From positions 1-64,000 of the forward strand of contig CALKXJ010000003.1 in the NCBI GenBank assembly GCA_938003835.1: a stretch of DNA of 64,000 nucleotides. The letters run 5' to 3'. Of this stretch, positions 33,816 to 58,859 are shown piece after piece (within the stretch, counting starts at the first letter, position 1; every line of letters starts with the position of its first letter). This DNA comes from an uncultured Bryobacteraceae bacterium (GTDB lineage Bacteria > Acidobacteriota > Terriglobia > Bryobacterales > Bryobacteraceae). The position numbers and the translations under genes were made by a program. The notes beneath the pieces are model-generated. The model was not told the origin of the DNA. It did no database searches and worked only from the letters and a program-made list of their open reading frames with translations.

Positions 33816-35636
33816 TCAGTAAGGCGGCAGCACGACGCGTTTGCCGCTTCGCTCCAGGCGCCGGGCGGAGACTTCGGGTAGATCGATGAAGTCCTCCAGG
33901 CCCTGATGGCAGGCGCCGCAGCGGGTCATCTCCTCGCCCAGATTGGCATGGCAACCGATGCAGAGCTGGTGCATCGCCTGCACGTAGCCGACGGCTCGGT
34001 AGCCTTTAACCTCGATCGGCGAGCCCTCGGGAATCAGATCCTTGTGGCAATCATTGCAGTGCCGGGCGGTTTCGCGGCTGCGCAGGGCGCCTTTGCGATG
34101 GCAGTCGACGCAGCTCAGGTTGGCGCCGCGCGCGGAGGCGTGCCAATCGTGCCGGAAGGCGTCCGACGGCAGGTACATGTCCCGGTGGCACTCGCTGCAA
34201 GCGGTGTTGCGGTCCCGCGGCAGGTTCATGTGATGGCAGCTCACGCACGAGTCCTTGCCGCCGGCGACCTCCTGGTGCGAACTGTGCCGGAAAGTGACGC
34301 CGAAGCCGTCGAGGTTGCCGTCGATGCGAAGCTCCTCGCCTCCGCGCGCATGCCGCACCGGCGTGGGACTGATGCCGCGGCTTTCGGCAGGCTGTGGCGC
34401 CAGCAGGGCGAATCCCACGGCGGCGGCGAGAATGAAGACTAGCGAGTAGGCTTCGGCCGCGGCTCGCGGAGGCCCAAGCCAGCGAAGGCGCGCCCTGTCG
34501 GCTTCGGGCAGCTCATCGGCGGCGGTGGCGGGATCGGCCGGGCGCTTCTCCCAGATCCGGAAGCGCTCCACCATGAACATGAACACCAGTACGGCCATGG
34601 ACACCACCCCGCAGGAAATTGCCAGCTCGGTCCAGGAGGGCAGATAGTAGCCCCGCCCGGTCTGCATGAACCCGCCGACATTGATCCGATTGACCACCAC
34701 GCCCCAGACGGCGAGTCCGGCAGTGATCCATTGGCCGGTCCGAGAGAAGCGCACGGCGGGAATCGAAAGCAACAGGACCGGCACAATCACCATGAGGGCG
34801 ATCTCGAACCAGAACATGGCGGTCTGCCACTCCGGCGTCCACAGAAGAGGAAGCCGACCCCGCCAGGCGAGATCAGCCAGTCGAATCGTCAGGTAACCGA
34901 GCAATACCCAACGCGCGCCGGCCCCAAAACGCGCCAGCAGCGCGGTCTCTGGCTTGCGGTGATACAGCCAGGCGGTGGTGTGACTTTCGAACATGACCAT
35001 CATCAGGCCCAGCCCGACCGCGGAGATGAAAAAGTTCACCGGCAACAGCGGCGAGTACCAGAGCGGATGCAGGTGATAGGGCATCAGCAAGAACAGGGAC
35101 CCGAGCGAGGACTGATGCAGCGTGGAGAGGCCGATGCCGGTGATCACCAGCGGAAGGCGGATCTTCAGCAGGGCCCGCCGGATCCGGGCCAGTGCGCTGA
35201 ACTCCTCGGCCGGCACGGGAAAGAACTCGAGCGCCAGCACAGTGAGGTACAGCATGACGCACCAGCCGACCTCGAACAGCGGCGAGCGCGGGTTCCAGTA
35301 GATGATCAGATGCCACATGTTCCACGGCAGGCCGAGGTCGAACACCAGTCCGGCTACGACGGCCAGGTAGCCGAGGAAGGCCGTCAGCACGGCGGGACGG
35401 ACGACGGCCCGGAACTCGTTCAGCCGGAAGATATAGACGATCGCGGTGACAATGAACCCCCCGGCGGCCAGCGCCACGCCGCTCAGCACGTCAAAGCCGA
35501 TCCACAGCCCCCAGGGAGTCGCGTCGGAGAGGTTCGTGGTGGCTCCGAGACCATACAGAAAGCGGCCGGCCGCCACGGCAAGCGCCAAGCCGGTGAACAG
35601 CCAGAGGATGAGCTTGACGACGCGCGCTCTATGCAT
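33816..35636 (-). CDS. HybB/NrfD-like quinone-reacting subunit fused to a hexahaem cytochrome c
   Basis: A 606-residue fusion. Residues 1-410 form a ten-helix NrfD/HybB/DsrP-type membrane protein (GLWIGFDVLSGVALAAGGFI, ESHTTAWLYHRKPE and NRINVGGF are family marks). Residues 430-585 hold six CxxCH haem sites, at C464, C480, C509, C527, C559 and C573, in a cytochrome c7/class III-like pattern with extra His residues for bis-His ligation. Such proteins pass electrons between the quinone pool and periplasmic carriers. It ends an operon with HybA-like and cytochrome b genes and follows the dsr cluster. ATG 35636 has a GGAGG site and overlaps the HybA-like stop. Fusing the two is unusual; Hmc/Tmc/Qrc complexes usually use separate subunits. 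Confidence 0.85.
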   Translation of the reverse strand: MHRARVVKLILWLFTGLALAVAAGRFLYGLGATTNLSDATPWGLWIGFDVLSGVALAAGGFIVTAIVYIFRLNEFRAVVRPAVLTAFLGYLAVVAGLVFDLGLPWNMWHLIIYWNPRSPLFEVGWCVMLYLTVLALEFFPVPAEEFSALARIRRALLKIRLPLVITGIGLSTLHQSSLGSLFLLMPYHLHPLWYSPLLPVNFFISAVGLGLMMVMFESHTTAWLYHRKPETALLARFGAGARWVLLGYLTIRLADLAWRGRLPLLWTPEWQTAMFWFEIALMVIVPVLLLSIPAVRFSRTGQWITAGLAVWGVVVNRINVGGFMQTGRGYYLPSWTELAISCGVVSMAVLVFMFMVERFRIWEKRPADPATAADELPEADRARLRWLGPPRAAAEAYSLVFILAAAVGFALLAPQPAESRGISPTPVRHARGGEELRIDGNLDGFGVTFRHSSHQEVAGGKDSCVSCHHMNLPRDRNTACSECHRDMYLPSDAFRHDWHASARGANLSCVDCHRKGALRSRETARHCNDCHKDLIPEGSPIEVKGYRAVGYVQAMHQLCIGCHANLGEEMTRCGACHQGLEDFIDLPEVSARRLERSGKRVVLPPY

Positions 35637-36405
35637 GATCGGCCTCCTGGGGAGGCCGGGGCTCCGGCTCACGCTCGAGTTTCATGCGGCGTTGGATCAC
35701 CCAGTTGACGGCGGCCATGGCCGACACCACGCCGAGAAATGCAAACGGCACGGCGTTCATGGCGAGCTTGGTTCGCTCCGGCACAGGCTCATCGGTCAGC
35801 TCCTGGCCGCGTGTCAAGAACGAAAGATCGATGTCGGAGATGTAGAGGACCGACGTGCCGCCCACCTCCGTTTCGCCCCACACTTTGTCCAGATACTTGC
35901 CCGGGCTCTCGCGCAGGCGCTGGCGCGCGACTTCAAGAAGATGCGCTCGCTCGCCGAAGATGGTCGCCTGCGTCGGGCAGGCCTCGGTGCAAGCGGGCTG
36001 CCGGCCGGTGCTGATGCGCGAGTAGCAGAAGATGCACTTGCGGATGTAAGGAACCGGCTGATCCCAATCGTAACGGGGGATGCCGAAGGGACACGACATC
36101 ATGCAGTAGCGACAGCCGATGCATTTGCGGCGAGCATAGATGACCGCGCCGGTCTTGGTCTTCTCCAGCGCTCCCACCGGGCAGGCCGATACGCAGGCCG
36201 GCTCCAGGCAATGGCGGCACTGTTTACGGACGTACTTGCCGTCCGGCCGGTCGATGACCGACGTCCAGTTGCGGGCGGATAAGCCGTCTTCGAGGTTCCA
36301 GCGGCGCGGGAAGTCAGGCGGCAGATTGTTCTCTTTCTTGCAGGCGATGACGCACTCCCGGCAGCCGATGCACTTGGTGGTGTCGGTCAGGATCGCGAAA
36401 GACAT
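35629..36405 (-). CDS. HybA/HmcB-like four-cluster ferredoxin subunit with C-terminal membrane anchor
   Basis: The 258-residue product carries four [4Fe-4S] motifs: CIGCRECVIAC (C12-C22), CRHCLEPACVSACPVG, CIGCRYCMMSCPFG and CIFCYSRISTGRQPACTEAC with CPTQ. Near the C-terminus one membrane helix (NAVPFAFLGVVSAMAAVNWV) anchors it, as in HybA, FdhB and HmcB. It should wire electrons between the HybB-cytochrome subunit and a partner on the periplasmic or cytoplasmic face. No signal peptide is visible at its N-terminus, so the side of the membrane is not certain. The gene overlaps the fusion gene by 8 bases. Confidence 0.85.
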   Translation of the reverse strand: MSFAILTDTTKCIGCRECVIACKKENNLPPDFPRRWNLEDGLSARNWTSVIDRPDGKYVRKQCRHCLEPACVSACPVGALEKTKTGAVIYARRKCIGCRYCMMSCPFGIPRYDWDQPVPYIRKCIFCYSRISTGRQPACTEACPTQATIFGERAHLLEVARQRLRESPGKYLDKVWGETEVGGTSVLYISDIDLSFLTRGQELTDEPVPERTKLAMNAVPFAFLGVVSAMAAVNWVIQRRMKLEREPEPRPPQEADHA

Positions 36406-36412
36406 ACCTTCG

Positions 36413-37111
36413 TCAAACCTCCTCGGCGGAAGTCGTCGGGCTTACAGGCGCCGGACGCGGGCGGTAGGTGATGGACAGCGCCAGAATCTCCGCCAGCGGT
36501 CTCCAGGGTGATCGGACGACGTAACGGGCCAGGGGCTCGAGCACGCAGTCGGCCACGCGGGTGAAGGGAATCACGGCCAGGATGAAGTTGCCTGAGTAGA
36601 CGTGTAGGAGCATCAGGAAGCGATAGGACTCGGGTTGAAAGGCGAAGTTGGCAGCCAGGTAGCCCGAGGCCACCGGCACCAATAGCGTCAGCACCCAAAT
36701 GGGCCGGCGGCCTTCGACCACTCCGCGCGCCAGGTCGATCGAGCTCATCAGGAAAAGCGCAGCCCCGGCGGCCACCGTGGCCACCGCCAGCCAGTCGGAA
36801 ACCTCCTTCGGAAGGGCGAACCAGGCGAAGCCGACCGCGCGGCGCCAGGCGAAAACGTGAGCGGCGACAAACAGTGGCAAGGCGATCAGTCCGGTGTGGA
36901 AAACCGTGAGCAGCAGGGCGCGCGCCGCTGTCCAGAGCGCGCCAGGCCGCACCGTCGGGCCACGTCGCGCCGGCGGGGCCTCCGCTCCGGAATGGTTGTT
37001 GTTGCGCGTGCGGAGAAACGCAAGCACCACCAGGCGTAGCAGCCCAAGCAGCATCAGGGCGAATGCAAAACGGAAGAGTGGCCCGCGACCGAATTCCAGC
37101 CAATCGAACAC
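36413..37111 (-). CDS. Cytochrome b-type membrane subunit (NarI/HmcE/DsrM-like)
   Basis: A 232-residue protein with about five membrane helices and several His in helix positions (TVFHTGLIALPLFVAAHVFA, LMLLHVYSGNF) typical of the NarI/DsrM/HmcE family of dihaem b proteins. The GTG at 37111 (VFDWLEFGRGPLFRFAFAL) has a GGAAGGAG ribosome-binding site 11 bases upstream; the long open frame to 37345 would overlap the TauE gene. It sits 7 bases before the HybA-like gene and so belongs to the same three-subunit membrane redox complex. The substrate side is not known. Confidence 0.72.
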   Translation of the reverse strand: MFDWLEFGRGPLFRFAFALMLLGLLRLVVLAFLRTRNNNHSGAEAPPARRGPTVRPGALWTAARALLLTVFHTGLIALPLFVAAHVFAWRRAVGFAWFALPKEVSDWLAVATVAAGAALFLMSSIDLARGVVEGRRPIWVLTLLVPVASGYLAANFAFQPESYRFLMLLHVYSGNFILAVIPFTRVADCVLEPLARYVVRSPWRPLAEILALSITYRPRPAPVSPTTSAEEV

Positions 37112-37208: not shown

Positions 37209-38132
37209 CTATACCAAAAACTGTCGGATATAGCTCGCCGCGATCCCCAGCACCACCAGGCCGAGCCCCAGGCGGATCCAACGCTCCGGGAGATATTTCT
37301 GCATGCGGGCCCCGACGAAGGTCCCGGCCAGGCCGCCGATGCCAAACAGCATGCCGAGGAGCCAATCCGGACGCACCGGCACCGGCGCGGATTCGCGCCA
37401 GATGCCCAGCAGCTCGAAGAAGACCACCCCGGCGATGGAGGTTGCGAAGGTGCCGAACAGGGACGCGCCGGCTACGGTGTAGATGGGCAGGTGAAAGACG
37501 CTCACGACGAACGGCGCGATGATGGCGCCGCCGCCGATGCCGTAGATGCCCCCGGCGATGCCGACCGCCAACGAGAGCGCGAACAGCGCCAGCGGGCTGA
37601 AGGAGAACGTCTCGCCCCAGAACTCGTAGTCGACCCGGCGCAGCGAGACGCGCCGGGTCCGAACGACAGCCTCCTTGGGGAGGCGTCCGCTGAACTTGGC
37701 CTCGATGGCGCGTTTGGCGGCGCTCGAGCTCCGCCCGCCGGTGAAGAACTCCGCCAGCAGTCGCGAGCCGAGCCATGCCAGCACCAGGCCGACGAAAAAC
37801 TTCGCCGAACGCGCGTCGGAAAGGTAACGGACACGAACCAGGGCGCCCAGAACGATGCCGGGCAGCGTGCCCGCCAGCGTCGTCCAGGCGATCGGCCAGG
37901 CCATGCGGCCCTCGCGGATGTATTGCGAAACGCCGCCGGGGATCGCAATGACGTTATAGAGCAGGTTAGTGGCGCTGACGGCCGGGCTGGTGAAACCCAG
38001 CACGCTCATCTGAAAGGGCAGGATCAGAAAGGCGCCGGAGACTCCGGCCGGACTCACCAGCGTGGAGATCGCGAATGCCACCAGCGGGGGAACGATGGGC
38101 GAGACATCCACGCCGGAGGTAGGGAAGTGCAC
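37209..38132 (-). CDS. TauE/SafE family sulfite or sulfonate exporter
   Basis: About 307 residues with eight membrane helices in two related halves (FAISTLVSPAGVSGAFLILP, FALSLAVGIAGGIYGIGGGA), the GGxxGIGGG-type pattern of TauE/SafE (DUF81) transporters. The family moves sulfite, sulfoacetate or other small sulfur anions across the inner membrane. Its position 80-90 bases after the YeiH and small-membrane-protein genes argues for handling sulfur anions. A TTG at 38147 has its GGAGG directly attached, so GTG 38132 is preferred, but the start is uncertain. Confidence 0.8.
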   Translation of the reverse strand: MHFPTSGVDVSPIVPPLVAFAISTLVSPAGVSGAFLILPFQMSVLGFTSPAVSATNLLYNVIAIPGGVSQYIREGRMAWPIAWTTLAGTLPGIVLGALVRVRYLSDARSAKFFVGLVLAWLGSRLLAEFFTGGRSSSAAKRAIEAKFSGRLPKEAVVRTRRVSLRRVDYEFWGETFSFSPLALFALSLAVGIAGGIYGIGGGAIIAPFVVSVFHLPIYTVAGASLFGTFATSIAGVVFFELLGIWRESAPVPVRPDWLLGMLFGIGGLAGTFVGARMQKYLPERWIRLGLGLVVLGIAASYIRQFLV

Positions 38133-38229
38133 AGGTTCTTGTCTCAACCTCCGCAGTCGATCTTACCGCTTGCGGGCGCAGGCCGAAGCGGCGAAGCGGA
38201 GATGCGCGGGATCGGTCGGGCCCGTTCGT

Positions 38230-38382
38230 TTACAGGAACAGCTCGCTGAGCCAGACGAGTGCGCCCAGGGCCACCAGACCGATGGTGATGCTCCAGGCGA
38301 TGAGCTTTTTTTCGATCGCCAGCAGCGGCTCGTGCTCCATCTTGCGGAGTTCGTCGGCCAGCTTCGGCTCTTCGGACTTCAT
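38230..38382 (-). CDS. 50-residue single-helix membrane protein
   Basis: A short ORF of 51 codons with ATG 38382 and a CAAGGAG ribosome-binding site (38390-38397, minus strand) about 7 bases upstream. The N-terminal half is charged (MKSEEPKLADELRKMEHEPL) and the C-terminal half is one hydrophobic helix (LIAWSITIGLVALGALVWLS) ending ELFL. It lies 28 bases after yeiH and before the TauE gene on the same strand, so it may be a small accessory subunit or regulator of either transporter. No family is recognised. Confidence 0.7.
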   Translation of the reverse strand: MKSEEPKLADELRKMEHEPLLAIEKKLIAWSITIGLVALGALVWLSELFL

Positions 38383-38410
38383 CGGCACGACTCCTTGAAG
38401 AAAAAAATCC

Positions 38411-41011: not shown

Positions 41012-41020
41012 GGCGGCACC

Positions 41021-43842: not shown

Positions 43843-43845
43843 GCG

Positions 43846-48210: not shown

Positions 48211-49293
48211 CTACATACGAATATGAGTCGACCGGGCATAGGTCAGGCCGGCGTGCTTGAAGTCGTCGATATGGTAGCGCGTGAAGGGAATGCCGGTGAG
48301 CTCAAAGAAACGCGGCCAGCCGATACGCTCGATCCACTCACCCATCCGCTCGTATTTCCGCGCGTTGGCGGCGTAGACGTTGACGATGTTGACCACCGCG
48401 TCGACCACCTCGGGCCAGCGCGGCGGATTGTTGGGCAGAAACGGGATGGCCAGCTTGGAGAACTTCGGCGCGGTGCGCGCGTTGGAGACCTTGCCGCCCA
48501 CCCAGATCGACAAGCCGTCGGTGTCCGGGTTGTTGAGCGGCATGGCCGGGCAGACCGTGTAGCAGTTGCCGCAGTACATGCACTGCGCCTCGATCACCTC
48601 TACCGACTGCCGGCCGTCGACCGTAGCGGGCCGGATGGCGCCGGTGGGGCAAGAGGCGATCAGCGTCGGCACCTCGCACATCTTGCGCAGGGCGTCGTGA
48701 TGGATCTTCGGCGGCCTTCGGTGGACGCCCAGGATGGCGATGTCCGAGCAGTGCACGGCGCCGCACATGTTCAGGCAGCAGGCCAGCGCCACGCGGAGCT
48801 TGGCCGGCAGGCTCTCGCTGGTGAAGTGATCATAGAGCGCGTCCATGACACACTTGACGATGCCGCTGGCGTCGGTGGCCGCCGAGTGGCAGTGGACCCA
48901 GCCCTGGGTGTGCACCACGTTGCTGATGGCGTTGTTGGTCCCGCCGACCGGGAAGCCCATCTCCTGAAGCTCGCGCTTGAGCGGCTCGATGTTGTCCGGA
49001 TTGTCGAGCAGGAACTCGACGTTGTTCCGGCTGGTGAAGCGCAGGTGGCCGCCCGAGTATTTGTCGGCGAGCGCCGCAATCTGCCGGAGCGTCTGCACGC
49101 TCAGCAGCCGCGGCGAGCCGGCACGCACCGTCCAAACGCGGTCGCCGGACTCGGCCACATGCACGAAGACGCCCGGGGCGATCCGTTCATGGTAGAGCCA
49201 CTTGCCGTAATTCTTCTTGATGATCGGCGGCAGGAACTTCTCGTAATGGGGCGGCCCGATGTCGGTGATTCGCTTGGCGGGTTGAGCTGACAT
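48211..49293 (-). CDS. dsrB: DsrB, dissimilatory sulfite reductase beta subunit
   Basis: The 360-residue catalytic partner of DsrA. Siroheme/[4Fe-4S] cysteines are seen at [12 protein letters not shown] (C172, C173, C177, C182), and a ferredoxin domain has C215 and C238-C248 ([13 protein letters not shown]). Conserved substrate-side residues appear in [14 protein letters not shown]. The protein reduces sulfite in the alpha2beta2 complex, with DsrC as acceptor. It follows dsrA by 32 bases and ends 9 bases before dsrD. Confidence 0.96.
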
Positions 49294-49325: not shown

Positions 49326-50516
49326 TCAGGCCTGCTCTTCGTCGGTGCGGAAGAAGATGTAGGGGTTGTCCCGCGGCGCCGAGACCATCTCCGGCACCGG
49401 CTCCAGTCCGATGGCATCGAGGAAGTTGGCCATGCCGACGCGCTGGATCAGCTCGCCGATGCGCTCGCGGTTCATGCCGTGCTCGTCCCAGAACTCCCAG
49501 ACCCGATTGATGAGCTCCTTCACGGTCTCCTCGAGCTCCTCTTCCGGCACGAACGGGATCAGAACGCTCGACAGCAGCGCCCCTTGGACGATCGGCGCTT
49601 TGGCGCCGATGAGGATGGTGGCGCCGCGCTCCTTGCCCGGCCGCAGCGCCTTGGGCATCACGTTAATGCAGTGCATGCACCGGACGCACTCGCGGTTGTT
49701 GATGGTCAACTTCGCGCCGTCCCATTCCATGCAGCGGGTGGGGCAGCGGTCGACCACGTCCTTCTGGATGTTGACGCCCTCGGCGGCATAGGCGGCCACG
49801 GCATCGTCATCCTGCTGGATGTCGTCCTTCCAGGTGCCGATGATCGATAAATCGGCCCGGGCGATCGAAGCGACGCAATCGTTGGGGCAGCCGGCGCACT
49901 TGATCTTGAACTTGTAGGGGAACGGCGGCCGGTGCAGCTCATCCTGGTAGGTCATCGTCAGGTCGTAGCAGAGCTTCAGCGTGTCATAGCAGGCCCATTC
50001 GCACCGGGCCGGCCCCACGCAGGCCGAGGGCGTCCGCATCGAGGAGCCGGAGCCGCCCAAATCGAACCCGTTGGCCGTCAGCTCCTGAAAGCACGGTTCG
50101 AGCTCCTCGGTCCGGGTGCCGAGAAAGATGATGTCGCCCGTCGAGCCGTGCATGTTGGTCAGGCCTGAGCCGTGCCGCTCCCAGATATCGCACAAGGTGC
50201 GGAGCGCATCGGAGGTGTAGAACCAGCCGGCCGGCTGGTTAATGCGCATGGTGTGGAAATGAGCCACCCGGGGGAACTTCTCCGGGACGTCGGAGTAGCG
50301 GCCGATCACTCCGCCGCCGTAGCCAAGCACTCCGACGATGCCGCCGTGCTTCCAGTGCCCGATCTTTTCCCGGTAGGACAGCTCCAGTTGCCCTAGCAGG
50401 TCGTCGCACATCGGTGAGGTTTGCCGAGCCTTCTTGATCTCGGTGACAAAGCTCGGCCAGGGGCCCTTCTCGAGCTCATCGAGAAGCGGCGTGTCGATTT
50501 TCTCCGCAACCGCCAT
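49326..50516 (-). CDS. dsrA: DsrA, dissimilatory sulfite reductase alpha subunit
   Basis: A 396-residue alpha subunit. It shows the CX5C (C166-C172, [10 protein letters not shown]) and CX3C (C210-C214, CAGCPNDC) signatures that bind the siroheme-coupled cluster, and a ferredoxin insert (C258, C277, C280, C283). [17 protein letters not shown] is a conserved DsrA stretch. It forms the sulfite reductase with DsrB. ATG 50516 has an AGGAG ribosome-binding site, and the gene begins 23 bases after the qmoC stop. Confidence 0.96.
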
Positions 50517-50539: not shown

Positions 50540-51670
50540 TTAAGACCCTTTACTGCGATTTTCCAGCATAATCGCTTCTCGCCTCTCCCGCACCGCCGCC
50601 ATCGCCACCGTCCGGTAGCAGAAGTGCGCCAGCTTGGAGTACGGGGCGTAGCCGAGCAGCAGGAAGATCAGCACCAGGTGCACATAGTAGACCAGGTACA
50701 TGCCGGGGACCTGGCCCTGCCGCAGGAACTGGCTGGCAAAGCCGGTGACGATGACCCCGGCCAGCACGATCAGAAAGAACCAGTCAAAGTAGGTGCTGCG
50801 GGTGCGCTTGAGGGGGTCGCCGGCCCGATCCGCCACCAGGATTGCCACCCCGATGAGCGAACCGGCCGCCGCGAGATTGGCGAAGATCTTCAGCGGGCTG
50901 GTGGCTGCAAGCGGCGTGTGAACCAGACCCGCCATGTGACCCAGCCCCACAATGGTGCCCACCGCGGCCAGCCCGACGAAGCCCCACAGGGTGAGCAGGT
51001 GACCCCAGTAGCGGGTTCGCTCGGCGCCGCAGTCGGCAAAGCGCCGGTGCGTGGCGATCTCGGCGAGCGTACCCGGCAAATTGGCCAGGATGGGAGCCGT
51101 GGCGCCGCCTGCCCGCAGCGCCCGCACGAACCGGGTCATTCCGATCGCGAAGCTGAGTAACACGAACCCGGAGAGGCTGAAGAACAGAGCCTCGAGCACC
51201 GGAATGGGGAACTGGTTGGCGAACTCCATCCGGCCGGGATAGACCGAGTCGGCCTCCGGGCCCCAGGCCCAGAGCGCGCCGAAGAGCAGCAGGGGGACCA
51301 GCACCAGCAGGGGCAGCATCTGCGGGTTGTTCACCCAGCGGCCCAGAAAGCGCGGCCAGGTGAAGTACTTGATCGCCTCGCGCCTCAGGGCGCCGAAAAC
51401 ATCGCCGGGGCGCGCTCCGCGCGGGCAGTGCGTGGTGCAGTCGCCGCAGTTGTGGCACAGCCAGATTGCCGGGTCGCTGAGCACCCGGTCCTTGAGGCCC
51501 CACTGCGCCGCGAGCATCTGCCGGCGCGGGAAAGGCGCCTCGTCGGTCGAGAGTGTGCACACCACCGAGCAGGTGGCGCACTGGTAACACTTCTTCAGAT
51601 CCGCGCCGCCCGAGCCGATTACCTCCCGGAGGAACTTCGTGTCAGGCTGGACCAGAAGCGTTTCAGCCAT
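50540..51670 (-). CDS. qmoC: QmoC, membrane subunit of the quinone-interacting oxidoreductase
   Basis: A 376-residue fusion of a HdrC-like ferredoxin part ([13 protein letters not shown] and [19 protein letters not shown]) with a HdrE/NarI-like cytochrome b part of about six helices. Together with QmoA and QmoB it moves electrons from menaquinol to APS reductase. Its C-terminal region ([20 protein letters not shown]) is the standard QmoC ending. It follows qmoB by 12 bases. Confidence 0.94.
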
Positions 51671-51682
51671 CGCTAGCCTCCC

Positions 51683-53944
51683 TCAGAAGCCCTTGTACGG
51701 ATTCGGGCCGAGCTCGGCCACGTGCGAAGCGAACTCGTCGATCAGCGCCGGCAGGCGGTCGTACTCGTTGATGGCCACTTCGGCCAGGCGCAGCCGCTCG
51801 GACTCGAGCCGCAACCGGTCGAGTGTCTCCTTGACGTTCGTCATGCGGCGGTTGGCCAGTTCGCTGCCGGAGACGAAGTGGCACTGGTAGTTTTCGCCGA
51901 ACTTGCAGCCGAGCAGCAGGATCCCGTCGATGCCCCGCGAGAGCGCGTCGGCGATCCAGACGATGTTGAGCGAACCCAGGCACCGCAGCGGGATCACGCG
52001 CACGTAGGTGCTGTAACGGCGCCGGTGGTAGCCCGCCAGATCGAGCGCCGGGTAGGCGTCGTTCTCGCACATGAAGACCAGGATGCGCGGCTTCTCCTCG
52101 AACTCCTCGGGCACCTCGATCGACTTGATCATCGCCGCGATCATGTCCACGGAGTAGTTCGGGAAGTTGATGATGCGCTCCGGGCAGGCGCCCATGCAGA
52201 TGCCGCAGCGGCGGCACCGCAGCACGTTGAACTGGGGCGTGCCCTTGGCGTCTTCATTCAGCGTGCCGAACGGGCACTCCTCGGTGCACCGCTTGCACTG
52301 CGTGCAGCGCTGGAGGAAGAAGTCCGGGTAGGAGAGATCGCCCGCCCGCGGGTGGACTGCCTCGCCCCGAGCCGCCATCTCGACGGCCTGGATCGCCTTC
52401 AGCGCGGCGCCGGCGGCGTCCTCCTCGGCCCGAGCGCCGTCCATGGGCGCCCGTACCGCCCCGGCCGCATAGATGGCCGTGCGGCGCGTCTCATAGGGGA
52501 AGCAGATGAAGTGTGAATCCGGAAAGCCGTACTTGAGCACCGGAAGGTCTGGCCCCTGGCGGTAGCCGAGGTTGAGGATCTCGGTGTTCTCGTGGTGCTT
52601 GAGCTCTTCGACGCGGCGGGCGGCCTCGGCGCGCTGCGCGGCGCTGTCGCTGTGGAGCACCTTGAGCTGGTTGTCCTTGAGCTCGCGAATCGCCGGACCG
52701 TCGGCCGAATTGGGCACCATGCCGGTGGCCAGCACCACCAGGTCGGCGTGAATCACCAGATCGGCGCCCAGGGGCGTCCCGGTCACGGTCACCGCCAGCC
52801 GGCCGTCCGACAGCGTCTCGACGCGGGTGACCTCGCCCTTGGTGAAGAAGTTGAGCGCGTCGTCCTGGGCCGCGCGGTAGAAGCGCTCGTACTGGCCCGG
52901 CGTGCGAATGTCTTTGTAGATGACGTAGATCTTTGCCTCCGGGCTGTCCTCGCGGATGTACCGGGTCTGCTTGAGCGTGGCCAGGCAGCAGACCGAGGAG
53001 CAGTAGGGCAAGTGCTCGGGGTCGCGTGAGCCGGCGCACTGCACGAACACCACGTCGGAGACCGGCTTGCCGTCCGAGGGACGGCGGATCGGCCCCTGGG
53101 CGGCCATCCGCTCCAGCTCAACGCCGGTGATGACATCCGGGCTCAGACCGTAGCCCAGATGAGAGAGCCGCGTGGCGTCGTAAGGCTTCCAGCCAGTGGC
53201 CATCACGATGGCCCCGACCCGGTCGGCGAGCTCGCCCTCGGCGGTGGCGAGCGTGACGTCGAACTGGCCGGGTTGGCCGTCGGTGCGGGCGATCCGCGTC
53301 GAGGTCAGCACCCGGATCTTCGGATGATACAGAGCCTCTTCGATGCGCGCCTTCAGGCCGTCTGCGGCAAGCTCGATATAGGGTGGCTGGCCGGGGAAAC
53401 GCTTGCGGACCGACGCAAGGAAGCCCCCCAGGCGCGGCTCCTTCTCGATGAGCAGCACTTCATAGCCGGCGGCCGCCGCCTCGAGCGCCGCCGTGAGGCC
53501 GGCGATGCCGCCGCCCACCACCATGATCTTGCGCGAGACCGCTTCGGCGGCGGGCGCGGGCGCCTTGGCCTTCTGCGCCTTGGTGACGCCCATGCGGAGG
53601 TAGTCCTCCGCCATCATCTGTGTGTCCTCGTCACCAGGCGGCTGGCACCAGGCGACGTGCTCGCGGAGGTTGACCCGCTCGACCACGAGTTCGCTCGGGA
53701 AAACAAAGGCCTCCGTCTTGGCGCGCGGCGAGCAGGCGGCGAGCACGATCTTGTCCACCTTGCGGGGCTCGCCGTCCAGGTCCTGGCGAATCAGCGCGAG
53801 CCCTTCGGGGCCGCACAGGTAAGGATGCACCTGGACGCTCGCCGCCTTGAGCTCGCCGGTGGCGAGCTTGGCGAGCTTCGCCGTATCGACCGCTTCCCCG
53901 ATGCCGCAGCCGGCGCAGATATAGACTCCGATCTTCTCAGGCAT
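51683..53944 (-). CDS. qmoB: QmoB, HdrA/MvhD-like flavoprotein
   Basis: A 753-residue protein with an N-terminal CxxC segment (GVYICAGCGIGEAVD), the FAD motif VVGGGIAGLTAALEAAAAGY, two ferredoxin motifs (CTQCKRCTEECPFGTLN, CRRCGICMGACPERI) and a C-terminal MvhD-like part (ILVFMCENDAYPALD, VIPLRCLGSLNIVWI). This order is that of QmoB. It channels electrons, possibly with flavin bifurcation, toward AprBA. ATG 53944 overlaps qmoA by 8 bases. Confidence 0.94.
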   Translation of the reverse strand: MPEKIGVYICAGCGIGEAVDTAKLAKLATGELKAASVQVHPYLCGPEGLALIRQDLDGEPRKVDKIVLAACSPRAKTEAFVFPSELVVERVNLREHVAWCQPPGDEDTQMMAEDYLRMGVTKAQKAKAPAPAAEAVSRKIMVVGGGIAGLTAALEAAAAGYEVLLIEKEPRLGGFLASVRKRFPGQPPYIELAADGLKARIEEALYHPKIRVLTSTRIARTDGQPGQFDVTLATAEGELADRVGAIVMATGWKPYDATRLSHLGYGLSPDVITGVELERMAAQGPIRRPSDGKPVSDVVFVQCAGSRDPEHLPYCSSVCCLATLKQTRYIREDSPEAKIYVIYKDIRTPGQYERFYRAAQDDALNFFTKGEVTRVETLSDGRLAVTVTGTPLGADLVIHADLVVLATGMVPNSADGPAIRELKDNQLKVLHSDSAAQRAEAARRVEELKHHENTEILNLGYRQGPDLPVLKYGFPDSHFICFPYETRRTAIYAAGAVRAPMDGARAEEDAAGAALKAIQAVEMAARGEAVHPRAGDLSYPDFFLQRCTQCKRCTEECPFGTLNEDAKGTPQFNVLRCRRCGICMGACPERIINFPNYSVDMIAAMIKSIEVPEEFEEKPRILVFMCENDAYPALDLAGYHRRRYSTYVRVIPLRCLGSLNIVWIADALSRGIDGILLLGCKFGENYQCHFVSGSELANRRMTNVKETLDRLRLESERLRLAEVAINEYDRLPALIDEFASHVAELGPNPYKGF

Positions 53945-55196
53945 GGCGCGCGCTCCTTCCCGCGCACTGGAGGGCTTTGAGGGCCGCCGCGGTGGCGTCC
54001 TGCACGGTGGCGGAAACCTCCTCGGGCCGGCGCACGCAGCCGGCCGCATACAGGCCCTTGAGGCCCGGCGGATTGACGGCGAAACGGAATTCGTCGCGAG
54101 CGAACCCGGCAGGCAAGCCCTCCGTGTTCGGCACAATGCCCGTGGCAAGCACCACCAGCGAGGCGCGCACGGCGGTTCGCCTGCCGTTCATCACATCCTC
54201 GGCGGTGACCACCAGATCGCCCGTCGCCGCGTCCTCTTCGATCTTGGCGGCCTTGCCTTTGATGAGCTCGATGCCGCCGGCGGCCGCCTGCCGGTAGAAG
54301 TCCTCGAGCCGGCCCGGCGTGCGGATGTCGATGTAGAAGATCGTGATCCTGGCCTCCGGATAGAGCGAACGCACGTAGGTGGCCTGCTTGAGCGAGGCCG
54401 CGCAACAGACGGCGGAGCAGTAGGGCAGGTGATTCTCATCGCGCGAACCGGCGCACTGGATGAAGACCACCGACTCGGGCGGCTTGCCGTCGCTCGGCCG
54501 CAGGATCCGGCCGCCGGTGGGGCCGCTGGGGGCCGCCAGCCGCTCCAGAATGACGTTGGTGACGACGTTCTTCAGCCGGCCGTAGCCCAGGTTCTCGATC
54601 CGCGTGGCGTCATAGGGAGACCAGCCGGTGGCGGCGATCACGGCGGAGGCGCGGTACGTGCGCTGCTCTTCTCGCTGATCGAGTTCGATCGCGTTATAGC
54701 GGCAGGCCTCCTGGCACGCCGTGCAGCCGTCCGGGCACGCGGCGCGGTCAATCACGTAATAGGCCGGATAGGCCATCGCATGCGGCAGATAGGCCGCCTT
54801 CGTCCGGGACAGCCCGAGATTGAACTCGTCGCTGCGCTCAGCCGGGCAGACCCTGGCGCATTCGCCGCAAGCGGTGCAGGCCGAGGTGACGTAGCGCGGC
54901 GCCAGCTTCACCCTCACCTCGTAGTCGCCCGGCGCGCCGGAAAGCGATTCCACGCTCGCCAGCGTCAATACCTCGATGCGCGGGTTGTTTTTGATCCGGC
55001 GAAAATTGATCTCCAGTCCGCAGCCCGGTGGGCACAGCTTGGGAAAGTACAGGTTCGTGCGCGCCACGCGCCCGCCGAGCGAAGCTTCTTTTTCGACCAG
55101 CACGACGTGAGCGCCGGCCTCGGCCGCTTCGATGGCCGCGGTCATGCCGGCCATGCCGCCGCCGATCACCAGGATCGGTTTTCCGTTCTCAACCAT
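53937..55196 (-). CDS. qmoA: QmoA, HdrA-like flavoprotein
   Basis: A 419-residue HdrA-like flavoprotein with LVIGGGMAGMTAAIEAAEA at the N-terminus, NLYFPKLCPPGCGLEIN, and the QmoA stretch GWSPYDATRIENLGYG. Cysteines C107, C110, C113, C117 and C154, C158, C161, C165 could bind one or two [4Fe-4S] clusters. It sits between the YkgJ-like gene and qmoB with overlapping ends, so translation is coupled. It passes electrons from QmoC/B to AprBA. Confidence 0.94.
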   Translation of the reverse strand: MVENGKPILVIGGGMAGMTAAIEAAEAGAHVVLVEKEASLGGRVARTNLYFPKLCPPGCGLEINFRRIKNNPRIEVLTLASVESLSGAPGDYEVRVKLAPRYVTSACTACGECARVCPAERSDEFNLGLSRTKAAYLPHAMAYPAYYVIDRAACPDGCTACQEACRYNAIELDQREEQRTYRASAVIAATGWSPYDATRIENLGYGRLKNVVTNVILERLAAPSGPTGGRILRPSDGKPPESVVFIQCAGSRDENHLPYCSAVCCAASLKQATYVRSLYPEARITIFYIDIRTPGRLEDFYRQAAAGGIELIKGKAAKIEEDAATGDLVVTAEDVMNGRRTAVRASLVVLATGIVPNTEGLPAGFARDEFRFAVNPPGLKGLYAAGCVRRPEEVSATVQDATAAALKALQCAGRSARHA

Positions 55197-56013
55197 GAAT
55201 CTTCCCCTGCTTCTCCAGTGCCTGGCGGCGCTCGCGCGCGACGCTGGGGCGGATTTTCAGCGTCCTTTGGCGGAAGAGGCTGAAGCGCAGCCACTGCATG
55301 GCGAAATCGAGCAGCTCGAGGTCGTCGGTTCGCATCGCCTCGACGCGCGCCTCATCGACGTCGAACAGCTCGAGGAACCGCGTCTCGAAGACAAAGCGCC
55401 GGAAGCGGTCCACGTCATAACAGGCCATGTAGTACATGTCGATCTGCTGGGGCGTGAGCTCCTCGCTGCGCTCCCAGAAGTCATCGAGCATCAGGTCGCG
55501 GAAGGAGGCCCCCATCATCTCGTACTCCTCGAGGCCCTCCTGCTCGATCCAGCGGCGCACCGTCTGCGGCTCGCCCTGCCCGTGGCCGAGGCAGAGGTCC
55601 TCCTTCACCAGGAAGTGAAAGCGCCGGTCGCTGGCGGTGGGATTCTTCGGGTCGGCGACGCCGAGCGGATACATGCGGCAGGCCCAGGGCCGGTGGGCGT
55701 AGATCCGGCAGCCCTGCTCGCCGACGAACGGGCAGCGCCGGTCCTCCGCGTTCATCTTCAGCAGCACGACGGGGATCTTCTGCTCCGGGGTGAACGGGCT
55801 GATGGTGTAGCGTTGCAGAAACTCGCTTGAGGAGATCTTGAGCGCCTGCTTCATGCGCACGACGTCATAAGGCGTCAGCACGATCGCGACGTCGCGGCAG
55901 CAGCGGGTAAAGCATTCCAGATCGCGCCCGCAGCGGAAGCGGAAAGTATCGTCAAGCCCCAGGCGGGGCATCTCGCCGACGATCTGTTGCGCCAGAGACG
56001 CATCAGCGGGCAT
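55189..56013 (-). CDS. YkgJ-family cysteine-cluster protein
   Basis: A 274-residue protein with the YkgJ (Fe-S/zinc chelating) pattern: [17 protein letters not shown] near the N-terminus, then [21 protein letters not shown] 120-residue C-terminal part ([20 protein letters not shown]) has no recognised motif. Members of this family may help with metal or cluster maturation. It lies between aprA and qmoA and overlaps qmoA by 8 bases, so it is translated with the APS reductase system. The role is an inference. Confidence 0.75.
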
Positions 56014-56296
56014 GGGCGGCCTCCTGGCGCCGGGCATCCAGGATGGAACTGCGCAAGGCGTCGCGCGACCACACCGGTAGTGGCCCCGTTTCTCCGGTCT
56101 GAGGATCCAGCCGCCAGCGGTAGGAGGCGTTGACCTGGTAGTGCTGCAGCATCCAGGCCCAGCCCCGCACGAAGTAAGGACAGTCGTCGTTGAAGCAAAC
56201 CCACTGAAACTCGCCGCTCCAACTGCTGAGCTGCGGATTGGCCCAGCGCACCATCTCGGCTCCGCAGTGGCGGCACCGGACCGGCGTTTCCGTCAT
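56003..56296 (-). CDS. Small zinc-finger protein between aprA and the qmo genes
   Basis: A 97-residue product with a CxxC pair (C8, C11) and CFNDDC (C34, C39), the zinc-ribbon layout of Ogr/Delta-type small zinc fingers. It is rich in Trp and aromatic residues ([25 protein letters not shown]). The gene overlaps the YkgJ-like gene by 11 bases, so it is coupled to it. Similar small zinc-finger genes occur next to aprBA in some sulfate reducers, a point from memory. The function is unknown. Confidence 0.7.
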
Positions 56297-56368
56297 GCTC
56301 GCGCCCTCCACTCTGAGTCTGGGGGAGGCCCTCCGGCGGGAAGGCCTCCCCGGCCAGTCCCTTCCTCC

Positions 56369-58294
56369 TCAGCCGCCGAGCAGCTCATGCTCGCCCGGCT
56401 TGGGGAAAATGCTCTTGATGGGTCTGGTCAGCATCTGCCAGCTATTGGTCTTCGGGTCATAGCGGCAGTTGGCGAAAACCTCCCACTTCTCGTCCATGGC
56501 AGGCTTGTCGGCCCGGAAGTAGTAGCCGGGCCAGCGGGTCTCCTCGCGGAAGAGCATCGTGCGCACGTGGGCCTCGGCCTGCCACATGCGGTGAATGTTC
56601 TCCCAGCAGCGCATCAGCTCATGGAGGTTGGCCGCGGCGAGCTTCTCGGAATCCTCCTTGAGGTAGCCGAGCAGCTCGAGCGCCCGGTTGAGCATCGCCT
56701 CGTTGGTGGTGAACTGTGCGCTGATGCCGCCAGCGTACTCGTCCATGATCTTCTGGAGCCGGAACATGAACTGCCGCCAGCGGATGTAGTTCGGGTTCAC
56801 CTCGGTGTCGGTGGTCTCGTGGGCGTGCTTTTCGTAAAGTTCGAGCGGCCGCAGGATCTCGGCCTTCAGGGCCATCACCTTGGCCTGGTCGATCTCCGGC
56901 ATCGTGTTGTTTTCCACGATGAACTTGATCGCGCTCTTGGCGGCGATGCGGCCCTCGGCGTGTGAGCCAGAGGAGAACTTATGCGAGCTGGCTCCGGAGG
57001 CGTCGCCGGCGCAGAACAGGCCTTTCACCGTCGACATATTCGTATAGCCCCAGAAGTACTCCTCGCGGGTCTCCTCGGTTTGCAGGTCCTCGGGCCCGCT
57101 CACCCAGGCGCCCGAGGCGCCCGAGTGCGAACCGATGAAGTACGGCTCGGCGGCGGCGATCTCCGAGCTCTTCTCTTCCGGCTGGACGTTGGTGGCGGCC
57201 CAGAGCAAGGCCTGCGAGATGGTCATGTCGAGGAAGTCCTCCCAGGCCTCGGACTCGAGCTCGCGCATCTTCTTCTTGTAGGCCTTGTCGTCGCCCTTGT
57301 AGGCCTCGGCGATCTTGGCGATCGCCTCCTCGGTGCGCATGTAGATGGGCCCTTTGCCCTCCTTGATGTCCAACATGCCCAGCCAGTTGCGCAGGTTGGC
57401 CGGAATCGGCTTCACGCGGCCGTAGGGGGCCCACTTCTCGAGCTCGTCGCGGCGCTCCACCATGTAGTCGCCGCCCATGGCGTTCGTCGCCCGGCTCTTG
57501 AACAGCAGGAACCAGGCGCCGACGGGCCCGTAGGCGTCCTTGAAGCGCACCGGGATGAAGCGGACCTCCTGGCAGGTCATCTCGGCGCCGGCCTTGATGG
57601 TGAAGTAGGCCGACGAGCCGGAGTTCCATGGCGGATACCAGGCGCGGCCCATGCCTTCGCCGGAGCTCCGCGGCTTGAAGACGTGCACCGCCCCGCCCAT
57701 GGCCACCAGCGTGGCTTTGGCCCGGAAGATGTAGAAGATGTTGTCGCGGACCGAGAAGCCGACGGCGCCGGCGCAGCGGTCCCCGTCCATCAGCGGGCCG
57801 ACGATGAAGACCCGCTCGTAGATCTCGCCCACGCCGCTTTGAAGCAGGGCGTTCTTGGCCGCCTCGGCGACGACGACCTTGTAGGACTCGCCGTTGATCA
57901 TTAACTGCCAGCGACCCTCATGGACATAGTTGCCTTCCTCGTCCTTCCAGATCGGCAAGCCCCACTTCTCGAACAGGTGCACGGTCGAATCGACGTGGCG
58001 CGCGATGTTGGCCACCAGGTCTTCGCGGGTGATCCCCATCAGGTCGTTGCGGACGTACTCGACATAGTCTTTGACGGTGTTTTTGCCGTCGCGCAGGCCG
58101 ACGTACTGGTTGATGGCCGACAGGCCCATCGCCACCGCGCCGGAGCGGTCGACGGCGGCCTTGTCCACCAGGGTGACCTTCAGGCCGTGCTGCTTGGCCC
58201 AGTAGGCCGCCTCGACGGCCGCGCCGCAGGCCGCCATGCCGCCGCCCAGGATCAGCAGATCGGTTTCGACGATTCGGTCCTCAAAATTCGCCAT
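56369..58294 (-). CDS. aprA: AprA, adenylylsulfate reductase alpha subunit
   Basis: A 641-residue FAD protein of the fumarate reductase-like family: DLLILGGGMAACGAAVEAAY (17-30), then DRSGAVAMGLSAINQYVGLR and RWQLMINGESYKVVVAEAAK, ending in the C-terminal KSIFPKPGEHELLGG. It reduces APS to sulfite and AMP in the cytoplasm with AprB. The gene starts 15 bases after aprB and is followed by the zinc-finger gene. Confidence 0.95.
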   Translation of the reverse strand: MANFEDRIVETDLLILGGGMAACGAAVEAAYWAKQHGLKVTLVDKAAVDRSGAVAMGLSAINQYVGLRDGKNTVKDYVEYVRNDLMGITREDLVANIARHVDSTVHLFEKWGLPIWKDEEGNYVHEGRWQLMINGESYKVVVAEAAKNALLQSGVGEIYERVFIVGPLMDGDRCAGAVGFSVRDNIFYIFRAKATLVAMGGAVHVFKPRSSGEGMGRAWYPPWNSGSSAYFTIKAGAEMTCQEVRFIPVRFKDAYGPVGAWFLLFKSRATNAMGGDYMVERRDELEKWAPYGRVKPIPANLRNWLGMLDIKEGKGPIYMRTEEAIAKIAEAYKGDDKAYKKKMRELESEAWEDFLDMTISQALLWAATNVQPEEKSSEIAAAEPYFIGSHSGASGAWVSGPEDLQTEETREEYFWGYTNMSTVKGLFCAGDASGASSHKFSSGSHAEGRIAAKSAIKFIVENNTMPEIDQAKVMALKAEILRPLELYEKHAHETTDTEVNPNYIRWRQFMFRLQKIMDEYAGGISAQFTTNEAMLNRALELLGYLKEDSEKLAAANLHELMRCWENIHRMWQAEAHVRTMLFREETRWPGYYFRADKPAMDEKWEVFANCRYDPKTNSWQMLTRPIKSIFPKPGEHELLGG

Positions 58295-58309
58295 TGTGGT
58301 ACTCCCTCC

Positions 58310-58750
58310 TTAACGCTTGAGGCTCCAGACCTGCTCGAGACCGAGCGAGCCGGGCTCGGTGAACAGGACGGGGCTGTTGAGGTCGCCAGCGGTGTCGAAT
58401 CCGCCGTGGGGCACAGCGGAACCTTCCGGGGTGGTGCGGATCGGGAACTTGAATCGTTTCAGGGTCCCGTTGCGGAACTTGACCGTCCACATGATCGAGT
58501 CGGTCGAGCGGAGCGGCGTCACCTGCGCGCCCATGGGAACGAAGTCGGCGTAGCCGCGGACCTCGATCGCCTGGGTGGGGCAGATCTTGACGCAGTTGTA
58601 GCATTCCCAACACATGGCCGGGTCCCGGTTGAAGGCTTTCATCTTCTCCTTATCCAGGACCATCAGGTCGTTGGGGCAGATGTACTGGCAAGCAGTCTTG
58701 TCCAGTGCCTTGCACCCATCGCACTTTTCGACGTTGACGTAGCTTGGCAT
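58310..58750 (-). CDS. aprB: AprB, adenylylsulfate reductase beta subunit
   Basis: A 146-residue subunit with two [4Fe-4S] clusters from C10, C13, C21, C25 and C47, C50, C53, C57 (CDGCKALDKTACQYIC; CWECYNCVKICPTQA). The rest (GYADFVPMGAQVTPLRSTDS) is the usual AprB middle, and the C-terminal tail is short. It delivers electrons to AprA. It is the first gene of the long sulfur operon, with a promoter-like sequence about 80 bases upstream. Confidence 0.95.
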   Translation of the reverse strand: MPSYVNVEKCDGCKALDKTACQYICPNDLMVLDKEKMKAFNRDPAMCWECYNCVKICPTQAIEVRGYADFVPMGAQVTPLRSTDSIMWTVKFRNGTLKRFKFPIRTTPEGSAVPHGGFDTAGDLNSPVLFTEPGSLGLEQVWSLKR

Positions 58751-58830
58751 CGGCTCACCTTCCTGGTTGATTCGGTTCCGGGGGCCTGCGGCGCCCCGGT
58801 GGCGTCGCAGGCCTAAACGTACAATTAAGA

Positions 58831-58859
58831 TCTTAAGGTCTGATAGTAGTATTTGTCAA
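58831..58859 (-). promoter_or_regulatory. Putative sigma-70-type promoter for the apr-qmo-dsr operon
   Basis: Read on the minus strand, TTGACA (58854-58859) is followed after a 17-base spacer by TTAAGA (58831-58836), about 80 bases before the aprB start. The -35 is a perfect consensus and the -10 is partial. The 12-base palindrome TTAAGATCTTAA (58825-58836) covers the -10, so it could also be a protein binding site. The region is AT-rich compared with its surroundings. Confidence 0.5.

What the first reader, a model, noticed from the sequence alone, without database searches (positions are those of the whole stretch)
33816..58859. A 25-gene sulfate-reduction super-operon in a probable acidobacterium
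Genes for AprBA, QmoABC, DsrABD, DsrL, DsrC and DsrMKJOP lie on one strand in pathway order, with gaps under 100 bases and many overlaps, and six or more extra genes are built in. In most sulfate reducers apr/qmo, dsrAB and dsrMKJOP are separate loci. A single block could be transferred as one unit or be co-regulated from one promoter.
Basis: partly seen in the sequence, partly recalled or inferred. Interest (0 to 1): 0.75.

Follow-up and report, generated by a model that had tools for sequence, protein, structure and literature searches.

The report
Sulfate-respiration gene block in an acidobacterium
A bacterium of a common soil phylum carries almost all of its sulfate-breathing genes as one 25-gene block with a single likely on-switch; relatives with the same layout are already in print, so this is a good example of something known, with a few unstudied genes inside it.

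Summary
25 minus-strand genes run from aprB (58750) to an NrfD–cytochrome c fusion (33816): aprBA, two conserved unknowns, qmoABC, dsrAB, a dsrD candidate, another unknown, dsrL-C-T-MKJOP, then a variable tail (YeiH-like, 50-aa protein, TauE, HmcE-like, HmcB-like, NrfD–hexaheme fusion). Gaps are 97 bases or less; 6 of 24 junctions overlap. The block is incomplete: sat and a CobB/DsrN-type gene lie on another contig, a DsrK-like paralogue on a third.

The arrangement is not new: Hausmann et al. 2018 report an acidobacterium with all such genes on one scaffold, Thiel et al. 2019 a similar order in another phylum. Of 15 class genomes with aprA over cut-off, 10 have it on dsrA's contig and strand.

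New details: the promoter match before aprB holds the palindrome TTAAGATCTTAA, exact only there in this genome and in a related genus; a 147-aa gene predicts as a four-helix, possibly ferritin-like protein; the Hmc-like tail lacks a DsrK-like subunit that 15 of 16 other genomes with the fusion have beside it. AprA and DsrAB trees largely agree within the class and cross family lines. Transcription is untested.

The parts
58825..58859 (-). promoter-like TTGACA-18-TAAGAT (58859-58830), with the palindrome TTAAGATCTTAA (58825-58836) over the -10 box
   Evidence: exact palindrome once in the 5.0 Mb genome
58974..59002 (-). 13-bp hairpin between the stop of the upstream large gene and the promoter, no T-run
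   Evidence: stretch 58940-59011, z -2.38, 1 of 200 shuffles as stable
58310..58750 (-). aprB
   Evidence: TIGR02060 210.6 bits, cut-off 135.65
56369..58294 (-). aprA
   Evidence: TIGR02061 890 bits, cut-off 641.75
56003..56296 (-). 97-aa zinc-ribbon-like conserved unknown
   Evidence: Ogr_Delta 30.3 bits, cut-off 26.3, scanned as the 102-aa form; same slot in relatives
55189..56013 (-). CxxCxxCC (YkgJ-type) conserved unknown
   Evidence: PF03692 over cut-off
53937..55196 (-). qmoA
   Evidence: HdrA-type match below cut-off and position
51683..53944 (-). qmoB
   Evidence: HdrA/VhuD-type matches below cut-off and position
50540..51670 (-). qmoC
   Evidence: NF038018 395.8 bits, cut-off 300
49326..50516 (-). 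dsrA
   Evidence: TIGR02064 603.3 bits, cut-off 392.85; solved DsrA chains to 5.5e-179
48211..49293 (-). dsrB
   Evidence: TIGR02066 514.3 bits, cut-off 341.5
47953..48201 (-). dsrD candidate, 82 aa, winged helix
   Evidence: position; AlphaFold2 pLDDT 85.9 and winged-helix matches; no family hit
47472..47915 (-). 147-aa four-helix, possibly ferritin-like protein, no Pfam/NCBIfam family
45777..47438 (-). dsrL (short, YRR motif)
45396..45713 (-). dsrC with two C-terminal Cys
   Evidence: TIGR03342 over cut-off; tail
44882..45376 (-). dsrT (RsbRD_N)
   Evidence: PF14361 over cut-off, adjacent to dsrM
43846..44844 (-). dsrM (start may be 44838)
   Evidence: NF038037 516.4 bits
42217..43842 (-). 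dsrK
   Evidence: NF045796 734.6 bits
41790..42224 (-). dsrJ, 3 CxxCH
   Evidence: NF038038 149.5 bits
41021..41800 (-). dsrO
   Evidence: NF045797 305.8 bits
39848..41011 (-). dsrP
   Evidence: NF045798 477.2 bits
38411..39847 (-). YeiH-family putative anion exporter
   Evidence: PF03601 over cut-off; TIGR00698 far below its cut-off
38230..38382 (-). 50-aa protein with one hydrophobic stretch
   Evidence: found after yeiH in G400, G387, G047; no Pfam family
37209..38132 (-). TauE/SafE-type exporter (start may be 38147)
   Evidence: PF01925 over cut-off
36413..37111 (-). HmcE/TmcC-like membrane subunit
   Evidence: NF045723 8e-20, below cut-off, scanned as a longer form
35629..36405 (-). HmcB/HybA-like iron-sulfur subunit
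   Evidence: NF045715 2.7e-70, below cut-off
33816..35636 (-). HmcC/HybB-like NrfD protein fused to a six-CxxCH class III-type cytochrome c
   Evidence: PF03916 and PF02085 over cut-off; NF045714 below cut-off

Best explanation
This is the sulfate-respiration locus of a probably facultatively aerobic acidobacterium, most likely working reductively: Sat (elsewhere in the genome) makes APS, AprBA with electrons from QmoABC makes sulfite, DsrABC with DsrL (NAD(P)H) and DsrD makes the DsrC trisulfide, and DsrMKJOP reduces it. The 19-gene core aprB to dsrP is an inherited and at times transferred cassette of Acidobacteriota (dsrD and the 147-aa gene are missing from it in some members); the tail after dsrP is variable. 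Most likely the block is transcribed from one promoter in front of aprB, gated by a regulator that binds a palindrome over the -10 box. The tail exports sulfite/sulfate (YeiH, TauE) and adds a compact Hmc-like membrane module that moves electrons between periplasmic c-type cytochromes and the quinone pool. Shown: gene content, order, spacing, conservation, trees, single occurrence of the palindrome. Inferred: direction, single transcript, regulation, the work of the tail and of the three conserved unknowns. The confidence below is for the pathway and cassette reading; the single-transcript step alone stands at about 0.65.
For: Curated models over cut-off for 11 core proteins. All 19 core genes in order in L007, L011, L013, L014; the same without dsrD and the 147-aa gene in L004 and, up to dsrK where the contig ends, L009; up to dsrC and dsrT at contig ends in L006 and L012. 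DsrB over cut-off in 18 of 399 class genomes, the window's included; aprA over cut-off in 15 of 19 genomes tested, 10 of those 15 on dsrA's contig and strand. TTGACA-17/18-TAAGAT in front of aprB in the window, G387 and G181; 1, 0 and 1 of 200 shuffles score as high. Exact palindrome once in G000 and once in G387, both at aprB. No minus-strand promoter match inside the block. Reductive signs: DsrL with YRR, DsrC with both cysteines, a DsrD candidate, and one DsrE-family match in the genome, not a dsrEFH trio. Terminal-oxidase genes present. PMC10564751 (passages): in another acidobacterium all pathway genes but dsrJ rose under anoxia.
Against: No RNA data. About two promoter matches per 20 kb, both strands, are expected by chance; none of the other 19 aprB leaders tested carries this site. 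With one mismatch allowed the palindrome is no commoner than its reversed control (1 and 1 in G000, 1 and 3 in G387), and the window holds 40 perfect 12-base palindromes, nearly all G+C-rich. Terminator-like sites exceed the expectation in 30-44.5 kb (23 against 10.4, sd 3.3), 18 of them on the minus strand, all inside genes as called. DsrD is not confirmed by sequence. sat and the CobB/DsrN-type gene are outside the block.
Confidence: 0.8

Rival explanations
1. The same enzymes run in reverse (sulfide oxidation) or in sulfur disproportionation, with oxygen as acceptor.
For: DsrL is present, terminal-oxidase genes are present, three TauE-type genes in the two sulfur loci; Hausmann et al. raise this option (passages).
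Against: DsrL carries YRR, which PMC8528874 (passages) ties to DsrL-2; one DsrE-family match, not three; a DsrD candidate is present; transcript data in another acidobacterium point to reduction (PMC10564751, passages). No tree with oxidative-type DsrAB was built.
Confidence: 0.12
2. The block is several adjacent transcription units (apr-qmo, dsrAB-L-C, dsrTMKJOP, export plus Hmc tail) that merely lie together. This touches the transcript step, not the pathway.
For: Relatives keep pieces apart or inverted: apr-qmo on the opposite strand in L010 and G183, apr in L016; the tail differs between genomes. Minus-strand terminator-like sites are enriched in the second half.
Against: Gaps of 97 bases or less, overlaps at 6 of 24 junctions, no minus-strand promoter match inside.
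Confidence: 0.3
3. A recently acquired genomic island.
For: Gene trees cross family lines.
Against: G+C 0.63-0.68 like the flanks, no tRNA in the window, nearest rows for AprA and DsrAB are members of its own family, G387 and G181. Integrase genes were not sought.
Confidence: 0.08

Closest known systems
Peatland Acidobacteria SbA1-7 sulfur loci (Hausmann et al. 2018, PMC6018796; section 12 and passages read, figure not seen)
   Same: aprBA, qmoABC and dsr genes with dsrD and dsrL together; SbA2 has all on one scaffold; four syntenic genes of unknown function
   Different: NrfD, Hmc, TauE and YeiH do not occur in the main text; here sat and the CobB/DsrN-type gene are apart. Gene-by-gene match to the figure not possible
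Ca. Thermonerobacter locus (Thiel et al. 2019, PMC6338057; passages read)
   Same: sat-aprBA-hyp-hyp-qmoC, then dsrAB-dsrD-dsrN-hyp-dsrL-dsrC; the three 'hyp' fit the zinc-ribbon, YkgJ-type and 147-aa genes (same slots in L046 and L065)
   Different: the passage names only qmoC after the two hyp genes, the window has qmoABC; other phylum; genes on two to four contigs there
DsrABDNCTMKJOP clusters (Neukirchen et al. 2023, PMC10504309; passages read)
   Same: consecutive dsr genes with dsrT next to dsrM
   Different: apr-qmo in front and dsrL inside here; no dsrN in the block
Hmc/Tmc complexes of Desulfovibrio
   Same: HmcB-, HmcC- and HmcE/TmcC-type subunits with a multiheme cytochrome
   Different: six CxxCH, fused to the NrfD protein; no HmcF/TmcB-type subunit beside it in this genome

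Membership tests
bacterial sulfate-reduction gene set (Apr-Qmo-Dsr) | aprBA, qmoABC, dsrAB, dsrC, dsrMKJOP | tested here: met
   QmoA and QmoB by HdrA-type match below cut-off and order
bacterial sulfate-reduction gene set (Apr-Qmo-Dsr) | sat in the genome | tested here: met
   G000:C23:75289-75954, outside the block
bacterial sulfate-reduction gene set (Apr-Qmo-Dsr) | DsrC with two C-terminal cysteines | tested here: met
   tail GACKLAGLPKPTGCV
bacterial sulfate-reduction gene set (Apr-Qmo-Dsr) | DsrD | tested here: inconclusive
   position and winged-helix fold; no sequence match to a family or to a solved DsrD
bacterial sulfate-reduction gene set (Apr-Qmo-Dsr) | reductive-type DsrAB by tree against oxidative type | not tested
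   no oxidative-type rows were put in the trees
DsrL type 2 | YRR motif in the NAD(P)H domain | tested here: met
   YRR at residues 294-296; meaning of the motif from PMC8528874 (passages)
DsrL type 2 | place in a DsrL tree | not tested
   no DsrL tree was built
Hmc complex | HmcB, HmcC, HmcE-type subunits | tested here: inconclusive
   matches, all below NCBIfam cut-offs
Hmc complex | separate 16-heme HmcA | tested here: not met
   six CxxCH fused to the NrfD protein; a separate HmcA elsewhere in the genome was not sought
Hmc complex | HmcF-type CCG subunit beside it | tested here: not met
   none beside it, and no orthologue in G000: best hit of the G181 protein 36% at C12, against 72-77% in 7 other genomes
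ferritin-like di-iron proteins | four-helix bundle with Glu/Asp/His ligand set | tested here: inconclusive
   four helices, pLDDT 92.6; invariant E26 D55 H59 H92 E96 D125 E126 H129 in 22 sequences; Z 9.3 to EncC over 77 residues, rmsd 6.2, within the range of chance for helical bundles
ferritin-like di-iron proteins | bound metal | not testable with these tools
   needs purified protein

The most novel reading that the evidence does not exclude
A whole respiratory pathway of 25 genes hangs on one private switch: a regulator that reads only this one site in the genome controls RNA polymerase at the aprB promoter, and the operon carries its own oxygen or peroxide guard (the 147-aa predicted di-iron protein, a family without a Pfam or NCBIfam model) so that a facultative aerobe can keep DsrAB usable across oxic spells; the NrfD-hexaheme module, stripped of its HmcF-type subunit, works as a plain cytochrome c:menaquinone reductase feeding Qmo and DsrMKJOP.
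Probability: 0.15. Interest if true: 0.55.

Novelty: new member of a known kind. Interest (0 to 1): 0.3.

Why it matters
Acidobacteriota are widespread in soils and peat, and at least one reduces sulfate and also respires oxygen (PMC10564751, passages). A locus with one predicted switch, found in three genera, makes co-regulation of the pathway directly testable, and three conserved genes of unknown work inside it (zinc ribbon, YkgJ-type, 147-aa four-helix) recur in the same slots in other phyla, which marks them as candidate pathway parts.

Tried and rejected
Rfam search of 33-60 kb at gathering scores: no hit. tRNA scan: none. Repeats: the QmoA/QmoB homology and short families of no evident meaning. 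Foldseek and VIA for the 147-aa model: no match above the chance level for helical bundles; among the closest were encapsulated ferritins and rubrerythrin-like proteins, with CopM first in Foldseek. Pfam for the same protein: nothing over cut-off. DsrD: no solved DsrD chain in the profile search or in the listed fold matches. I first took 38148-38410 for a gap; it holds the 50-aa gene. An early script translated that gene out of frame (that query found nothing); corrected. A guess that G400's dsr contig was C2 was wrong; it is C12. A TATCA-like similarity upstream of aprB in G088 and G400 reads as coding sequence of an upstream gene (by eye) and was dropped. Family f1 as one clade: not rejected by AprA (p 0.10), rejected by DsrAB (p 0.017); no claim made. 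Of 31 genomes with both proteins, 30 went into the trees; L028 was dropped because its AprA is cut at the end of the fetched locus. Paper searches for an Hmc or NrfD link to dsr in Acidobacteriota and for the unknown genes or a single apr-dsr operon there: I judged the listed rows by title and opening of the abstract only and saw none, beyond the cited papers, that announces this; figures and supplements were not readable, and subscription papers are mostly not held.
Full report
WHAT IS THERE. The window is the start of contig C3 of a 5.0 Mb, 38-contig genome rated 100% complete. On the minus strand 25 genes follow each other from aprB (58750-58310) to an NrfD-cytochrome fusion gene (35636-33816): aprB, aprA, zinc ribbon, YkgJ-type, qmoA, qmoB, qmoC, dsrA, dsrB, dsrD candidate, 147-aa gene, dsrL, dsrC, dsrT, dsrM, dsrK, dsrJ, dsrO, dsrP, yeiH-like, a 50-aa protein, tauE, hmcE-like, hmcB-like, nrfD-hexaheme fusion. 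Starts were chosen by Shine-Dalgarno-like sequence; tauE may start at 38132 or 38147. The longest gap is 97 bases, 6 of 24 junctions overlap. A UxuA-like gene and an amino-acid permease follow at 56 and 42 bases on the same strand and may be read through; relatives' copies of these two were not sought systematically.

IDENTITIES. Eleven proteins pass curated NCBIfam cut-offs (AprB, AprA, QmoC, DsrA, DsrB, DsrC family, DsrM, DsrK, DsrJ, DsrO, DsrP). QmoA and QmoB are HdrA-type proteins in the usual order. DsrL is an NAD(P)-binding GltD-like protein of 553 aa with a YRR motif, which PMC8528874 (passages) links to DsrL-2. DsrC has both C-terminal cysteines. The 82-aa protein after dsrB is DsrD by place; its model is a winged helix, as DsrD is reported to be (title of a reference seen), but no sequence search tied it to DsrD.

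NOT ALL IN ONE BLOCK. sat is at C23:75289, just after a gene over the CobB cut-off that may be DsrN or ordinary CobB, a PEP-synthase-like gene and two TauE-type genes on the same strand. A DsrK-like gene with a NarI-like partner is on C12. So the 'single block' holds most, not all, of the pathway. In two genomes of another family (G051, G138) the block reaches further: dsrP is followed by a DsrK-like gene, hmcE, hmcB, fusion and sat on the same strand (in G138 with another DsrK-like gene between).

RELATIVES. DsrB passes its cut-off in 18 of 399 genomes drawn from the class, the window's included. Of those 18 plus G166, whose dsrB is cut, aprA passes in 15 of 19. By position, 10 of the 15 have aprA and dsrA on one contig and strand (G000, G387, G088, G084, G364, G096, G051, G138, G166, G068; in G068 dsrB is split over two contigs), one on opposite strands (G183), four on different contigs (G181, G261, G112, G009). 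In G181 a 5.9-kb contig ends in qmoA on one side and dsrD on the other, and C48 ends in dsrB, so its block is probably whole. Among 80 nearest named DsrA loci (the best of at least 584), 46 have 9 kb or more upstream: 13 carry aprA upstream on the same strand and 4 on the other. aprBA, zinc ribbon and YkgJ-type gene stand before dsrAB outside Acidobacteriota too: with qmoABC between in L024 (Polyangiaceae), qmoAB in L036 (aprB beyond its contig end), qmoC in L046 and L065 (Kapabacteria/Ignavibacteria), none in L064 and L066.

EARLIER WORK. Hausmann et al. 2018 (PMC6018796; section 12 and passages) report these genes in peat Acidobacteria, in SbA2 all on one scaffold, with four syntenic unknowns. 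Thiel et al. 2019 (PMC6338057; passages) report sat-aprBA-hyp-hyp-qmoC followed by dsrAB-dsrD-dsrN-hyp-dsrL-dsrC. Neukirchen et al. 2023 (PMC10504309; passages) report DsrABDNCTMKJOP clusters. Dyksma and Pester 2023 (PMC10564751; passages) report that in an acidobacterium all canonical pathway genes but dsrJ rise under anoxia. The architecture is therefore known; this genome is a further member.

ONE SWITCH? Consensus scans of 30-64 kb find no minus-strand sigma-70-type match inside the block and one just before aprB, TTGACA-18-TAAGAT at 58859-58830 (about two matches per 20 kb, both strands, are expected by chance). G387 and G181 have TTGACA-17-TAAGAT and TTGACA-18-TAAGAT at the same place; 1, 0 and 1 of 200 shuffles (letters shuffled) reach the score in window, G387 and G181. 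The other 19 leaders tested, of which two pairs are the same genome, do not carry this site; L007 has a fair match of its own. The -10 box lies in the palindrome TTAAGATCTTAA. It occurs exactly once in the window's genome and once in G387, both at aprB; 0.012 exact copies are expected in 5 Mb from base composition. Against this: with one mismatch it is no commoner than its reversed control (1 and 1 in G000, 1 and 3 in G387); the window has 40 perfect 12-base palindromes, nearly all G+C-rich; G181 keeps only TTAAGATCT. Outside these boxes G387's leader aligns poorly with the other two, while window and G181 also share TATCAGACC just before the palindrome. I read this as an operator over a promoter; the regulator is unknown. 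A 13-bp hairpin separates the upstream gene. Terminator-like sites on the minus strand are enriched in 30-44.5 kb, all inside genes, and weaken the single-transcript reading somewhat.

TRANSFER. AprA (642 columns) and DsrAB (761 columns) quick trees of the same 30 genomes share subgroups: window+G387+G181 (89 and 97), G400+G405 (95 and 94), L006+L007 (97 and 99), L016+L010+G183+G009 (100 and 97), G084+G364 (84 and 93), G096+family f6 (87 and 94) (SH-aLRT, no bootstrap). Both reject family f10 as one clade (p 0.002 and under 0.001) and family f5 (p 3.8e-5 and 0.028). So apr and dsr appear to have moved mostly together, at times between families. The trees differ for G261 and G088 and in deeper branches outside Acidobacteriota. 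QmoC in the same slot comes in two forms: 396 bits here, about 220 bits (below the cut-off of 300) in G138 and G364, so single genes were exchanged or diverged inside the kept order.

THE TAIL. After dsrP the genomes differ: yeiH-like and the 50-aa gene in G400, G387 and G047, with tauE next in G387; none of these directly after dsrP in G181; the Hmc-like set in G051 and G138. Of 23 rows examined besides the window, 19 (16 genomes) have six CxxCH in the NrfD-cytochrome fusion and 4 have none, being unfused NrfD proteins. A DsrK-like gene precedes hmcE in 15 of those 16 genomes (in G261 only its end, at a contig edge), not in G400, nor in the window's genome, which has no orthologue. PMC6303296 (passages) considers HmcC-type proteins likely electrogenic; I infer quinone reduction here.

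THE 147-AA GENE. It sits before dsrL, after dsrB or dsrD, in Acidobacteriota and in some loci of other phyla (L043, L046, L065, L066; with a further gene between in several); 22 aligned sequences share invariant E26, D55, H59, H92, E96, D125, E126, H129. AlphaFold2 gives four long helices, pLDDT 92.6. The best PDB profile hits are designed helical bundles, one of them a di-iron and one a manganese design (E 0.003-0.007); the best VIA fold hits are encapsulated ferritins (Z 9.3 over 77 residues, rmsd 6.2), no better than helical bundles reach by chance. A metal-binding, perhaps oxygen- or peroxide-handling role is a guess that fits a genome with terminal-oxidase genes.

VERDICT. Interest 0.3.

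Noticed in passing
L166:2918-4048, L167:11947-13098 against window 50540-51670: Two QmoC forms (31-35% identical) occupy the same slot in otherwise syntenic blocks; one falls below the NCBIfam QmoC cut-off.
   Followed up: partly
L184:8060-9562: In G400 the hmcE-hmcB-fusion trio stands on another contig than dsr, about 2.5 kb downstream of a serine recombinase gene.
   Followed up: partly
L198 (G000:C23:65000-83586): Second sulfur locus: two TauE-type genes, a PEP-synthase-like gene, a CobB/DsrN-type gene and sat on one strand.
   Followed up: partly
L199:9174-11683 (G000:C12): NarI-like plus DsrK-like gene pair, a possible DsrMK-type paralogue apart from the block.
   Followed up: partly
L004, L008, L009: The dsrD candidate and the 147-aa gene are both missing between dsrB and dsrL; in G400 (L004's genome) a dsrD-like gene lies upstream of sat instead (L197:2630-2854).
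   Followed up: partly
window 58751-58826: The aprB leader can fold into a hairpin (z -1.74, 8 of 200 shuffles as stable).
   Followed up: no
window 31321-33759: UxuA-like protein with a Tat-type signal and an amino-acid permease follow the block on the same strand with short gaps; the 56-base gap before them folds no better than shuffles.
   Followed up: no
window 47953-48201 and its relatives: The DsrD candidate, a marker of reductive metabolism in the literature, matched no DsrD model: 28 sequences against NCBIfam, 10 against Pfam.
   Followed up: partly
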